From the NCBI GenBank assembly GCA_027011025.1, contig JALVAU010000125.1:1-10222 (forward strand): DNA of 10,222 nucleotides. The letters run 5' to 3'. Source of the DNA: Campylobacteraceae bacterium (lineage in GTDB: Bacteria; Campylobacterota; Campylobacteria; Campylobacterales; Sulfurospirillaceae). The notes under the pieces were generated by a model, which saw only the letters and a program-made list of their open reading frames with translations, made no database searches and was not told the DNA's origin. Both the position numbers and the translations under genes were made by a program. How positions within the stretch are numbered: position 1 is the first letter of the stretch; each line of letters begins with the position of its first letter. Of the stretch, positions 5,557 to 10,222 are shown in pieces.

Positions 5557-6066
5557 ATGGCAAGGCCAAAACCGACAACAAGCAGATATGATTTGAAGCC
5601 AAATGATTTTATCGTTTCAAAAACTGATTTGAAGGGAAAGATCACATACTGTAATAAGATTTTTATGCAGTTGGCAAAATATAGTGAAGAGGAACTCATA
5701 GGAGCACCTCATAATATAATAAGACATCCTGACATGCCTCGTATCGTATTTAAACTTTTATGGGATAGGATTCAAAATAGAGAGGAAATATTTGCTTATG
5801 TGAAAAATCTCTCAAAAGATGGTGGATACTATTGGGTCTATGCAAATGTTACTCCTTCGTTGGATGCTAGTGGAAATCTCATCGGATACTATTCTGTTAG
5901 AAGAAAACCAAGTGAAGAGGGAATAAGAACCTGTGAAGGGTTGTATGCTAATCTTATAAATGAAGAGAGAAGAGGAGGCATGGATGCTTCAAGTAGGTAC
6001 TTGAATGATTTGCTGAAAGAAAAAGGTGTTAGCTATGATGAGCTAGTCACCTCACTGCAAGGATAG
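5557..6066 (+). CDS. PAS-domain redox/energy sensor, CetB/Aer-like
   Basis: This 169-residue soluble protein is mostly one PAS domain (about 15-125). It closely follows the FAD-binding PAS of E. coli Aer: [11 protein letters not shown] (51-61, with R56 and H57 where Aer has R57 and H58), VKN (82-84), and [10 protein letters not shown] (91-100). A short helical tail (about 126-169) may contact the receptor. It has no membrane segment and no signalling domain. In Campylobacter jejuni the analogous CetB works with a separate receptor, CetA. Here the next gene, four bases downstream, is a chemoreceptor, so the two probably form a bipartite energy-taxis sensor. FAD binding is inferred from motif similarity. 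GGGAGG (5542-5547) lies nine bases before ATG. Confidence 0.85.
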
Positions 6067-6070
6067 AGAT

Positions 6071-7357
6071 ATGTTTGGTTCTAGAAAGAAAAATTCAGAT
6101 TTGATTGAGAAAATTAACAGGGTAGTGCTTAAAGCTGCAAATGGTGACTTGGAAGATAGGATAATTCATATAGATATGAAAGACCCACTTGCAAAAACTG
6201 CATGGGGTATAAATGATTTGCTTGATCAGCTAGAAGCCTATATGAGGGATGCAAATACTGCAGTAGAGTTTGCTAGTAGCGGAAAGAGTTATAGAAAAAT
6301 GTATCCTGAGGGACTAAAAGGACTTTTTAATGTATCTAGTAAAAATATCTCAAAAGGTGTTGATGGCATACTAATAGCTGGAAAAGAGAAATTAAGAGCC
6401 GAAATGAGTGTGCAATTTGGTACTTTAAATGGTGGAATAAGCTCTTCATTTAAGATTCTCCAAGCAGATATGCAAGAAGTTATAAATGTAGTTTCTCAAA
6501 TAAGTAGTATGTCTGAAAGTACAGCTATCAAATCAAATGAAAGTCTTAGTGTAACCCAGGAGATATCAAATAAACTAAATAACCTCATAGAGTTGATAAT
6601 GAGCATATCTGAAGCTATAAATTCACTAGGCTCTCGAACTGAGGAGATAAGCTCAGTCGTTAATCTCATAAAAGACATAGCGGATCAGACAAACCTTTTA
6701 GCACTGAACGCTGCTATAGAAGCAGCTCGTGCAGGTGAGCATGGAAGAGGATTTGCAGTTGTTGCCGATGAGGTAAGAAAACTAGCAGAGCGCACTCAAA
6801 AGGCAACTTCAGAGATAGCCATCACTATACAAACTCTCCAGCAAGAGACTCAAGATATACAATCAAATGCAAAAGAGATAAGTGAGATAGCTACAGACTC
6901 AGGAGAGGCTGTAGAGGGCTTTAAAACTACGCTAGAGGATTTCAGTAAAAATGCAAATGAGACATCAAAAGCATCAAAATATACTGAAGAGAAGAGTTTT
7001 TCTACCCTTGTTAAAATAGATCATATCATATATAAGACGACCGCGTACTCTTCTGTACTGAATGAAAAAGCAAATGAGATAGATTTTGTTGATGCAAATA
7101 GCTGTAGATTGGGTAAATGGTACAATACTAAAGGAAAAGAGCTTTTTGGATATACAAGTGCCTATAAAACCTTAAATACGCCGCATCAAAATATCCATAA
7201 TTTTGTAATTGCAAATATGCAAGAGCTAAATAAAAATGGCTTGAAAAAAAGTAATGCTAATTTCTATCTTGAAAACTTTAGAAATATGGAAGATAATAGT
7301 TTGAAGGTATTTGAAATGCTAGATAAGATGGTTAAAGAAAAGAGTGAGAGAAGATAA
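6071..7357 (+). CDS. Soluble methyl-accepting chemotaxis protein with C-terminal CZB zinc-binding domain
   Basis: This 428-residue chemoreceptor has no transmembrane segment. Residues about 10-100 form HAMP-like helices ([14 protein letters not shown], then a second similar unit with [14 protein letters not shown]). The MCP signalling hairpin follows, its tip at 205-231 ([27 protein letters not shown]). The C-terminal CZB domain (about 312-420) keeps all four expected zinc ligands: H318, C345 (in CRLGKWY), H372 and H376. CZB receptors such as Helicobacter TlpD are cytoplasmic and respond to oxidants or zinc. No CheR/CheB-docking pentapeptide is seen at the C terminus (KEKSERR). AAGGA (6059-6063) overlaps the PAS gene's stop region seven bases before ATG, so the two are co-translated. 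It probably relays the redox state of the PAS partner to CheW/CheA; specificity is unknown. Confidence 0.9.
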
Positions 7358-7990: not shown

Positions 7991-8410
7991 CTAAGGTTTT
8001 TGTATAGTTCGTCTATGTAGTCTAATAGGCTCGGTAGTTACTCCATCTTTGGTAGAGACAATAGTGTCAATTATAACTGTTCTATTTGAGTCATTTGTGT
8101 CTATATCGCTTCCAAGTTGTGTGCAATTTGTACCACTAAGCCCATTGCCAATATACATAATGCTGGCATTTATATCAAGTTGATTATTGTATGTCATATT
8201 TACATCTCTTAGGCACCCATTTGGAGCACCACTTATAGCTAGCAAGGCATACTCTGTACCGCTTCTAAGTAAAAGTTCGGCTTGGGATTTTAGATATATA
8301 TCGCTTGTCTGTTTGACTGATTGGGTTGAAAGTGCTATGCTTAGAGCCGATATAGTTGCTATTAGCACCAAAAATATGACAGCAGTTATGAGAGAAAATC
8401 CTTTTCGCAT
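7991..8410 (-). CDS. Minor pseudopilin, GspK/PilX-like
   Basis: This 139-residue protein has a type III (prepilin peptidase) signal: RKG|FSLIT, then a hydrophobic helix (residues 5-28). Position +5 of the mature protein is T9, not the usual Glu, a feature shared by GspK-type pseudopilins, which cap the tip. Two cysteines (C66, C96) may form a disulfide. Four D-x-N-x-S/T sequons are present (N71, N81, N106, N109); the last two overlap. It is much shorter than E. coli GspK, so it is a reduced or PilX-like version. I chose ATG at 8410, overlapping the previous stop (TGATG), with GGTGG seven bases upstream; TTG at 8413 is the alternative. It is the last gene of the pseudopilin operon. A run of seven T follows (7976-7982) without a clear hairpin, so read-through into hpf is possible. 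Confidence 0.7.
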   Translation of the reverse strand: MRKGFSLITAVIFLVLIATISALSIALSTQSVKQTSDIYLKSQAELLLRSGTEYALLAISGAPNGCLRDVNMTYNNQLDINASIMYIGNGLSGTNCTQLGSDIDTNDSNRTVIIDTIVSTKDGVTTEPIRLHRRTIQKP

Positions 8411-9297
8411 CAAAATACCACCTTCTCTTTACAAAATCCAAAATCCCCGCCTGTTCTATCGTCTCTTATGCAGAGCTTTAGTCTGATAGTCTCTCCACTT
8501 TGTAAAAATTTAAAACTACTGACATGCTCCATTAAAACTGAACTATTTCCATCATTATAATCCTCTCCATCCCAAGGTTGAAAATTATATTTCAATGTAA
8601 GATTGAAGTCATCACTTATCGTACCCTCTGGTACAATTGCATAAGCTGTCCAAGCTAAATCATATTGTTCATAAGCTGTTGTTATATTTTTATCAAGAAT
8701 TTGTAGTGTTTCATTGCCATCAACTCGTATATTATATGTATAGTTTGCATCATTTTTATTCCATCCATATTTTGTTACATTGTAGTCATCTTTGCCTTTA
8801 AAAATAAGTACGGCATGTGGGGTTGCTACAGTTGTATTTATATCAATAGTGCCATATGAGAGGGCATATATTATATCTCTTGCATATCCAAGATGGCTGC
8901 CACTGGTTTTGATGTGTGTTTTATCACTTGATTCTAAATCTATAAAACCACTCCAACCCGGCACATTTGCACTTTTGCTACTATCCCATTTTCCATTAAA
9001 ACCTTCATTGTCTTTGCCTATCCACTCTAAAATTGTATAGTTATTGTCGACACTACTATCCGATAAAGGCTTGATATTGCTGCCCTTTCTTGCTATCACA
9101 CTATCTTTTATGCGATATGTCAGTCTCTTTGCTATTTGGTTCAAAACCAGTTCTGTTTGAAATTGCAGTCTGTTTATAGATCTTGTTTGCAGGTAGTTTT
9201 CATATAGTTTTGCTATGATTTCTGCACCGATAGATGCAACTATGCCCATAACGACTATAACCATGACCAACTCTATCATAGTATATGCTTTTTTCAA
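8410..9297 (-). CDS. Minor pseudopilin, GspJ/PilW-like
   Basis: From the TTG start at 9297 this is a 295-residue prepilin: MKKA|YTMIELVMVIVVMG, with cleavage after A4 and Glu at mature position 5 (E9). Ala instead of Gly at -1 is tolerated. The helix (5-60) is followed by a long beta-rich periplasmic domain with a C-terminal cysteine pair (C276, C289). An in-frame codon at 9339 would add 14 residues before the signal, but TTG is better placed: AAGGA sits six bases upstream and it overlaps the preceding stop as TTGA. Eight sequons D-x-N-x-S/T are visible (N86, N154, N173, N185, N195, N204, N232, N251), and every N-x-S/T in the protein has the acidic residue. The GspJ assignment rests on length and gene order. 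Confidence 0.75.
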   Translation of the reverse strand: MKKAYTMIELVMVIVVMGIVASIGAEIIAKLYENYLQTRSINRLQFQTELVLNQIAKRLTYRIKDSVIARKGSNIKPLSDSSVDNNYTILEWIGKDNEGFNGKWDSSKSANVPGWSGFIDLESSDKTHIKTSGSHLGYARDIIYALSYGTIDINTTVATPHAVLIFKGKDDYNVTKYGWNKNDANYTYNIRVDGNETLQILDKNITTAYEQYDLAWTAYAIVPEGTISDDFNLTLKYNFQPWDGEDYNDGNSSVLMEHVSSFKFLQSGETIRLKLCIRDDRTGGDFGFCKEKVVF

Positions 9298-9962
9298 TAA
9301 AAATCCTTTCTTAAGAGTTGATTTGCACCGATATTGCAAGAAAAAGCCCGAAGTGTCAAGTTGCCATCAAGTTGAGAATTGTTTAGATCTACTGTTATCA
9401 TTTTTATATTTGTTGTGGTTGTTCCTGTAGGGAGTGTTGATGGATAAAAGATAAAAGGAGATGTATTGCTATCATTGATATATTTTACGCTTATTTTCAT
9501 TGTTGTATTTGCATCTGAAAACTTATAATCAAAAGATGCATTCGTAGTACCTGTTAAATTCTTATCTTTGTCATTGAAGTCATCTATGTCATCAGGAATA
9601 CTTTCTCCATTATCGGCTGTACCAAAAGTATTAGTTAAGCTTGCATTTCTTTCTGAATTAAAAAATTTTCTTCTCTTATTTCCTTTTACATGTCCTACTC
9701 TTCTTGTACTATTGCCATCTCTTCTGAAGTAGGTGCTATTTGTATCTAAAACACCTATTTTAAAATTCAATAAGCTATTTTCATCCCATCTGTAAGTGAC
9801 AATGTCTCCTATCTGTGTTCTTGCCATGAGTATCGCCTCTTGTTGCATAGCAAAATTGTTATTGCTTTGCACTCGACTAAGCATAAGAGGCAGGGTCATC
9901 ATGGCAATTCCCATGACGACTATAGCTATGACAAGCTCCAACATAGATGCAGCTTTTCTCAC
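9294..9962 (-). CDS. Minor pseudopilin, GspI/PilV-like
   Basis: This is a 222-residue prepilin: MRKA|ASMLELVIAIVVMGI, with Glu at mature position 5 (E9) and a hydrophobic helix through about 30. The rest is a polar Asp/Asn/Thr-rich exported domain with one cysteine (C209). Eight D/E-x-N-x-S/T sequons occur at N75, N84, N106, N135, N152, N166, N194 and N201. I chose GTG at 9962, which overlaps the previous stop as GTGA, with AAAGG eight bases upstream; TTG at 9965 is equally possible and adds one residue. The next gene starts inside its stop (TTGA). The second place in the operon and the intact Glu5 suggest GspI/PilV. The surface domain itself has no family I can name. Confidence 0.72.
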   Translation of the reverse strand: MRKAASMLELVIAIVVMGIAMMTLPLMLSRVQSNNNFAMQQEAILMARTQIGDIVTYRWDENSLLNFKIGVLDTNSTYFRRDGNSTRRVGHVKGNKRRKFFNSERNASLTNTFGTADNGESIPDDIDDFNDKDKNLTGTTNASFDYKFSDANTTMKISVKYINDSNTSPFIFYPSTLPTGTTTTNIKMITVDLNNSQLDGNLTLRAFSCNIGANQLLRKDFY

Positions 9963-10222
9963 CAATCTAGCCTTTGGTTTTGAATTGTAGATATATTTAG
10001 ATCTACAGTTTTACCTTGTATTCCTTGTCCTGCCCAACTATCATTTGCTTTAAAAAATTCTACTAAAAAATCAGTAGTATTGGCGTCTGGATTAAATTTG
10101 TTAAAAACTAACCATTTACTTGGTATTAATGTAATTTTATCTTTATAAGGTGCTACATGAGCAAGAGTTTTTATTTCTGAATCACCACCTATAAATATTC
10201 CTGAAGTTGTAGTGTCTTGTTG
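9959..10222 (-). CDS. C-terminal part of a probable minor pseudopilin (GspH/FimT-like), cut by the window edge
   Basis: On the minus strand an open frame runs from the window end to TGA at 9961-9959, giving the last 87 residues (ends STIQNQRLDW). It was probably missed by ORF callers because no start codon lies inside. Gene order (H-I-J-K in pseudopilin operons), GTGA coupling to the next gene, and a beta-rich Asp/Thr/Asn composition support a pseudopilin. Two sequons occur (DANTT and DLNIS). The N-terminal prepilin helix, which would prove the family, lies outside the window. Confidence 0.6.
   Translation of the reverse strand, partial: QQDTTTSGIFIGGDSEIKTLAHVAPYKDKITLIPSKWLVFNKFNPDANTTDFLVEFFKANDSWAGQGIQGKTVDLNISTIQNQRLDW

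What the first reader, a model, noticed from the sequence alone, without database searches (positions are those of the whole stretch)
7991..10222. Pseudopilins packed with bacterial N-glycosylation sequons
By hand count, 22 of the 26 N-x-S/T sites in the four pseudopilins have Asp or Glu at -2, matching the D/E-x-N-x-S/T (x not Pro) sequon of the Campylobacter PglB oligosaccharyltransferase. The GspJ-like protein has 8 of 8. In the other seven proteins of the window I count 17 N-x-S/T sites and only one with an acidic -2 residue, in M16, where Pro at -1 forbids use. This suggests a heavily N-glycosylated pilus or secretion tip. Asp/Asn/Thr-rich composition contributes but would not by itself give this spacing.
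Basis: partly seen in the sequence, partly recalled or inferred. Interest (0 to 1): 0.75.

Follow-up and report, generated by a model that had tools for sequence, protein, structure and literature searches.

The report
N-glycan sequons crowding a pilus tip
Genes for a bacterial pilus tip (three minor pilins and the end of a giant adhesin-like protein) are crowded with the motif to which the Campylobacter-type enzyme PglB attaches sugars, which suggests a sugar-coated pilus tip, though no sugar has yet been seen.

Summary
The count is right: 22 of 26 N-x-S/T sites in the four ORFs at 7991-10222 are D/E-x-N-x-S/T; shuffles average 1.15 and 0 of 10,000 reach 22. One identification is wrong: the fourth "pseudopilin" is the C-terminal tail of a giant exported protein. 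The set resembles an MSHA-pilus tip module (MshD/O/P-like minor pilins, MshQ/DUF6701-like giant).

In 120 J homologues, 935 of 1,188 sequon Asn have an acid at -2, against 97 of 1,552 other Asn. The enrichment is on pilus filament proteins; 116 other predicted exported proteins show none.

No pglB was found in the window's own draft genome, but recN and a sister's pglB neighbourhood are missing too, so a gap is likely. 41 of 44 family genomes have pglB; 153 of 156 class genomes with the giant have it. In pglB-less G321 the pattern is gone (1/18, control 7/89); seven of seven pglB+ genomes of its family keep it. G137 is intermediate. G027, also without detected pglB, keeps the pattern: evidence against, or a recent loss or gap.

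Most likely PglB densely N-glycosylates this pilus tip. No glycan is shown.

The parts
7991..8413 (-). K-like (MshP/GspK-like) minor pilin, 140 aa, 4 acidic sequons of 5 N-x-S/T; likely start ATG at about 8410, overlapping the stop of J
   Evidence: searches (counts; leader, overlap): acidic sequons at residues 82 and 110 are kept in 33 and 34 of 34 orthologues
8410..9339 (-). J-like (MshO/GspJ-like) minor pilin, 309 aa as listed (real start probably a TTG near 9297), 8 acidic sequons of 8
   Evidence: TIGR02532 prepilin motif 23 bits against cut-off 16.3; sequon at residue 246 acidic in 31 of 34 orthologues
9294..9965 (-). I-like (MshD-like) minor pilin with prepilin-like leader, 223 aa, 8 acidic sequons of 10; no family model matched it
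9959..10222 (-). C-terminal 87 residues of a giant exported, MshQ/DUF6701-like protein cut off by the contig end; 2 acidic sequons of 3
   Evidence: best match in 25 of 34 other cluster loci (not the window's own locus nor its C55 paralogue) is the end of a long ORF, 1,049-1,470 aa in the 19 not cut by a locus end and not short; 1,944 and 2,102 aa in two cut ones; 4 short ones (198, 271, 304, 419 aa)

Best explanation
The four overlapping genes encode the tip module of an MSHA-like type IV pilus: a giant adhesin-like protein and three minor pilins. After export, their periplasmic domains are dense acceptors for a Campylobacter-type oligosaccharyltransferase, PglB, which moves a lipid-linked glycan to the Asn of D/E-x-N-x-S/T. 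Selection keeps many sequons on these proteins, mostly without fixing where they lie. The outcome would be a glycan-coated pilus tip and adhesin, protected from proteases or phages, or tuned in stickiness. Shown: the motif, its excess over composition and over other Asn, its confinement to filament proteins in the samples read, co-occurrence with pglB, and its absence in one lineage without detected pglB. Inferred: pglB in this very organism, actual glycosylation, and the role of the glycan.
For: Window: 22 of 26, shuffle mean 1.15. Orthologues: acid at -2 of sequon Asn against other Asn K 114/145 v 1/223, J 194/310 v 34/494, I 92/163 v 49/402; 120 J homologues 935/1188 v 97/1552 and 120 giants 2923/5840 v 985/10331. 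Specificity: 116 other predicted exported proteins of G009, G013 and G000 samples 14/188 v 148/1326; in the G009 pilus locus the giant piece (24/30) and six pilins carry the motif, eight machinery proteins 0 or 1 each. Enzyme: PglB of a relative aligns end to end with C. lari PglB (E 3.6e-163); 41 of 44 family genomes have pglB. Co-occurrence: 153 of 156 genomes with the giant have pglB, 75 of 172 without it. Loss: G321, no PglB: giant 1/18 v 7/89 and N-x-S/T at shuffle level; seven of seven pglB+ genomes of its family odds ratio 11 or more.
Against: No pglB found in the own genome. G027 (99% complete, 40 contigs) has no PglB and yet keeps 24/39 v 8/61; G040 (98%) also lacks it and keeps K 4/4, J 5/12 in its paralogous cluster. 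pglB+ G346 is weak, 4/17 v 6/72. Triad residues are not more conserved than other D/E, N, S/T: I 42/120 v 177/295, J 93/168 v 322/525, K 64/84 v 159/224. The co-occurrence is confounded by descent. G321 is one lineage, distant from its sisters (J 44-46% identity).
Confidence: 0.78

Rival explanations
1. The sequons are real PglB acceptors by descent, but this species has lost pglB (as G027 and G040 may have), so they are relics, not yet eroded, and the pilus is unglycosylated here.
For: No PglB in G000 by PF02516, by PglB protein and by PF21436; G027 and G040 lack PglB and only short, not long, PF02719 genes rank high in them, yet sequons persist.
Against: G000 is 92.1% complete in 494 contigs and lacks recN, a core gene, and the coding part of the sister's pglB contig (40 of 223 first-look candidates were scored). 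The window's own I and J proteins are among the densest: 8/8 and 8/10.
Confidence: 0.13
2. D-x-N-x-S/T serves structure rather than glycosylation, for instance metal-binding loops or turns of beta-rich adhesins and pilins.
For: G027 and G040 keep the pattern without a detected PglB; three sites (K82, K110, J246) are nearly fixed; G346 has PglB but little pattern.
Against: Positions turn over: I 34 columns, none shared by half of 31 orthologues; J 30 columns, 3 shared; K 9 columns, 2 shared. The acid is tied to Asn followed by x-S/T, not to other Asn. G321, without detected pglB, keeps the proteins but not the pattern. J sequon Asn lie in coil in 6 of 8 cases of a medium-confidence model, with half of the exported part coil, so this says little.
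Confidence: 0.06
3. Compositional artefact of Asp/Asn/Thr-rich surface proteins.
For: The exported parts are rich in D, N and T.
Against: Shuffles: 1.15 against 22; 60 giants 1,468 against 166.1. Other Asn of the same proteins lack the acid. G321's giant C-terminus is the most Asn-rich of 14 compared (13.3%) and has no pattern.
Confidence: 0.01

Closest known systems
Campylobacter jejuni/lari Pgl N-glycosylation system (PglB, D/E-x-N-x-S/T rule)
   Same: Relatives encode a PglB that aligns end to end with C. lari PglB beside glycosyltransferase and PF02719 genes; the acceptor motif is the same, as stated in PMC4894442 (passages).
   Different: The motif is concentrated, tens per protein in the giants, on pilus tip proteins; the pglB neighbourhood differs (next to nadK/recN in G008, G003, G007 and with nadK further off in G009; near his-like genes in G013; labels recalled). 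The glycan is unknown.
MSHA type IV pilus (Vibrio), minor pilins MshD/O/P and putative adhesin MshQ
   Same: Order giant, I, J, K; DUF6701 hit in the paralogous giant piece of the same genome and in 2 of 11 giant C-termini; the paralogous cluster of G040 has an MshEN-type ATPase and a secretin. PMC7096442 calls MshQ a putative adhesin (passages).
   Different: The window cluster has no motor or secretin beside it (within the window); no direct sequence match of I, J or K to Msh proteins was obtained; Msh labels are recalled.
Archaeal N-glycosylated pilins and archaellins (AglB)
   Same: An STT3-family enzyme modifies type IV pilin-like filaments (starts of abstracts of PMC5131992 and PMC4390842).
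   Different: Bacterial; acidic -2 rule; tip module and giant adhesin-like protein.
Type II secretion minor pseudopilins GspI/J/K
   Same: Short prepilin-like exported proteins in a row.
   Different: No GspI or GspJ hit; K scores 14.7 bits against a GspK cut-off of 130.

Membership tests
PglB (Campylobacter-type) N-glycosylation acceptor | D/E-x-N-x-S/T, no Pro at -1 or +1, above chance, in an exported domain | tested here: met
   (22 of 26; shuffle mean 1.15); export inferred from prepilin-like leaders
PglB (Campylobacter-type) N-glycosylation acceptor | A pglB gene in the same genome | tested here: inconclusive
   None in G000; assembly lacks recN and the sister's pglB region; 41 of 44 family genomes have it
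PglB (Campylobacter-type) N-glycosylation acceptor | Relatives' PglB keeps the Arg paired with the -2 acid (C. lari R331) | tested here: met
   Arg in the RIS motif in 15 of 16 loci read (14, L001; L047 is a C-terminal fragment). Weak: PMC4894442 finds it in relaxed enzymes too (passages)
PglB (Campylobacter-type) N-glycosylation acceptor | Glycan attached to the Asn | not testable with these tools
   needs mass spectrometry
MSHA-type IV pilus tip module | Prepilin leader on the minor pilins | tested here: met
   J over the TIGR02532 cut-off; I and K judged by eye from the leader, no model over cut-off
MSHA-type IV pilus tip module | MshQ/DUF6701 domain on the giant | tested here: inconclusive
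   2 of 11 giant C-termini hit PF20419 (best E 2.5e-10) and so does the C55 paralogue, 29.5 bits against 27; the nearest relative (L061) has none. The link DUF6701-MshQ is recalled
MSHA-type IV pilus tip module | Own motor ATPase and secretin | tested here: inconclusive
   Not in the window; present in the paralogous cluster of G040; in G000 contig C55 is cut before them
Type II secretion minor pseudopilins | Match to GspI/J/K models at cut-off | tested here: not met
   K 14.7 of 130 bits; no GspI or GspJ hit

The most novel reading that the evidence does not exclude
In free-living Campylobacterota the MSHA-like pilus tip, above all its giant adhesin-like protein, is the main client for which PglB is kept: a hyper-N-glycosylated coat whose sequons drift in position but hold their density, and decay once pglB is lost, so that adhesin and oligosaccharyltransferase evolve as a pair.
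Probability: 0.4. Interest if true: 0.75.

Novelty: new variant of a known kind. Interest (0 to 1): 0.6.

Why it matters
What bacterial N-glycosylation is selected for is not well settled (an abstract in the listing, PMC7683400, calls the direct effects of such modifications unresolved). Here sequence evolution itself points at one client class: pilus filament and tip proteins with many good sequons, which move about, accompany pglB, and are absent in one lineage without it. If true it gives a test bed, in free-living bacteria, for what a bacterial N-glycan coat on an adhesin does, and a large natural set of PglB acceptor sites.

Tried and rejected
Composition as the cause: rejected by shuffles and by the other Asn of the same proteins. 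A general enrichment over exported proteins: not seen in the G009, G013 and G000 samples, 14/188 v 148/1326. The pglB-less samples are if anything slightly higher, G027 13/69 v 61/505 and G040 13/74 v 47/380, which I cannot explain. Export there is judged by a home-made hydrophobicity rule on part of each genome (20 blocks or contigs each for G009, G013, G000; 22 loci for G027; 17 for G040), with ORFs called by length. 'Sequon triads are more conserved than other residues': tested, not found. Type II secretion membership: not met. Structure of J: medium confidence (mean pLDDT 74.4), no fold match at E 0.001 or better; by sequence only pilin N-terminal helices match, best MshA at E 0.0014.

Dropped rows and biases. 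One search leaves out the G040 and C55 clusters (paralogues) and I proteins under 150 aa. Searches found 598 and 281 proteins; only the 120 listed of each were counted, and they include the window's own protein (P0001) and G008's giant (P0121). Those searches draw words from sequon-rich queries, so they may favour sequon-rich relatives. Model A1 was made from 11 sequon-rich members, though it found the sequon-poor G321. The Fisher value ignores relatedness. The seven pglB+ family members compared with G321 are those of the 30 loci cut out. G137's pglB+ sister G241 was not read, so G137 has no same-genus comparison.

Literature. Nine searches (lists capped at 10 or 20 where longer) showed no title or abstract start describing N-glycosylated pseudopilins or MSHA pili in Campylobacterota. 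Passages only were seen of PMC4894442, PMC7096442, PMC6025236 and PMC6215017 (which had nothing on R331). Labels MshD/O/P/Q, PglC/E/F, nadK and his genes are recalled or read off families.

Full report
Observation. The window is one whole contig (C125) of a 1.97 Mb draft genome in 494 contigs, 92.1% complete. Named relatives of the J gene are two 'Campylobacteraceae bacterium' MAGs and a Sulfurospirillum sp. MAG. The four minus-strand ORFs at 7991-10222 hold 26 N-x-S/T sites, 22 of them D/E-x-N-x-S/T. The other seven proteins hold 17, none usable. Shuffled exported parts give 1.15 acidic sequons on average and 0 of 10,000 shuffles reach 22; N-x-S/T as such is also in excess (26 against 10.4). 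Only 3 of 34 other Asn have an acid at -2.

What the genes are. I, J and K have prepilin-like leaders and start on or next to the stop of the gene before, as in one operon. J passes the TIGR02532 prepilin cut-off; none matches a GspI/J/K model at cut-off, and Pfam gives nothing for the four ORFs. The fourth ORF is not a pseudopilin. In 25 of 34 other cluster loci its best match is the end of a long ORF: 1,049-1,470 aa in 19, 1,944 and 2,102 aa in two cut by the fetch, and 4 short ones of 198-419 aa. In G009 the open frame is 4,065 aa. LamG and DUF11 domains were found in the G002 giant, and precomputed lists and names add PA14, Calx-beta and Ig-like domains in others. A paralogous cluster on contig C55 of the same genome has the same order and a DUF6701 hit. 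In G040 that cluster lies with an MshEN-type ATPase and a secretin. So the module looks like the tip of an MSHA-type pilus. Msh names are recalled; MshQ is called a putative adhesin in PMC7096442 (passages).

The motif across relatives. On alignments of 31 (I) and 34 (J, K) orthologues the acid peaks at -2: K 114/145 sequon Asn against 1/223 other Asn, J 194/310 against 34/494, I 92/163 against 49/402. Positions turn over: 34 columns in I, none shared by half; 30 in J, 3 shared; 9 in K, 2 shared; K82 (33 of 34), K110 (34 of 34) and J246 (31 of 34) are nearly fixed. Against a simple expectation, triad residues are not more conserved than other D/E, N, S/T. In 120 listed J homologues the figures are 935/1188 against 97/1552 and in 120 giants 2923/5840 against 985/10331; Thr is favoured over Ser in the J sequons (609 to 326, background 2576 to 2835). 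Neighbouring genes read in the same loci (HPF 33, MCP 7, PAS 7, recG 31, M16 29, mqnC 29 proteins, the window's included) have at most one acidic sequon each, 13 in 136 proteins; the I, J and K proteins outside the window have 411 of 648 (this last figure includes the two paralogous clusters).

Specific to the filament. In sampled parts of G009, G013 and G000, 116 predicted exported proteins outside the G009 pilus locus show 14/188 against 148/1326, no enrichment. In that pilus locus the giant piece (24/30) and six pilin-like proteins (6/8, 6/9, 2/3, 2/5, 4/7, 4/4) carry acidic sequons; eight machinery proteins have 0 or 1 each, the one in the place of the secretin 0 of 6 (places judged by likeness to the G040 operon).

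The enzyme. A relative's PglB matches C. lari PglB over its length. G008's has PF02516, PF21436 and PF18527 domains and glycosyltransferase-type neighbours. The Arg in line with C. lari R331 is in 15 of 16 loci read (14, L001); the other is a C-terminal fragment. PMC4894442 (passages) proposes R331 as partner of the -2 Asp, but finds it in relaxed enzymes as well, so this is weak support. pglB is in 40 of 44 family genomes by PF02516, G041 below the curated cut-off, and in G029 by protein search. It was not found in G000, G027 or G040. G000 also lacks recN, and G008's 13.5 kb pglB contig finds only short matches there, most of them in two dispersed repeats. A gap is the likely reason.

Natural experiments. 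Of 328 class genomes, 228 have pglB and 156 the giant. Of the 156, 153 have pglB, against 75 of the other 172; descent confounds this. The exceptions are G000, G137 and G321. G321 (99% complete, 110 contigs) has no PglB by three searches. The last 850 residues of its giant have 1/18 acidic sequons against 7/89, and N-x-S/T at shuffle level (18 against 15.8); the whole giant has 3/27 against 10/120; its J has 0/5, K 0/2, I 1/4. Seven of seven pglB+ genomes of its family have odds ratios of 11 or more and N-x-S/T 1.6 to 2.4 times shuffle. G137 (100%, no PglB) is intermediate, 6/16 against 8/82, with N-x-S/T at shuffle level (16 against 14.0). Against the reading: G027 (99%, no PglB found) keeps 24/39 against 8/61; G040 keeps K 4/4 and J 5/12; pglB+ G346 is weak, 4/17 against 6/72. 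A recent loss or an assembly gap could explain G027 and G040, but neither is shown; in both, recN is present.

Verdict. The finding is real, and its main interpretation holds on comparison: a pilus tip module rich in PglB-type sequons, probably N-glycosylated. Two corrections: the fourth gene is the end of a giant adhesin-like protein, and the system looks MSHA-like rather than type II secretion. No glycan is shown, and pglB in this very organism is inferred.

Noticed in passing
G000 contigs C47:7030-7139, C32:3355-3462, C62:3349-3468, C212:243-448 and others; L053:1703-1812 and 12086-12320: Two dispersed repeat families of roughly 100-230 bases, about 72-87% alike in the longer matches, lie between genes and recur in the own genome and its sister (17 matches listed, a few of them in a response regulator gene; copies read). 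Not identified.
   Followed up: partly
G009:C1:1006169-1007395 and G115:C1:1192770-1194011: Frames of 4,065 and 4,079 aa end in the same C-terminal domain, so the giant varies about fourfold in length.
   Followed up: no
G000:C55 (L059:339-3742): A second, paralogous pilus cluster of the same genome is also sequon-rich: K-like 5/5, J-like 8/11, I-like 6/9 and giant piece 17/21.
   Followed up: partly
G044, G114 and many others of families f2 and f3: Many genomes have two STT3-family matches, so two oligosaccharyltransferases may coexist; specificity not looked at.
   Followed up: no
window 5557-7357: A lone PAS-domain protein lies directly before a chemoreceptor-type protein with MCP signalling and CZB zinc-binding domains, perhaps a split redox or energy sensor.
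   Followed up: no
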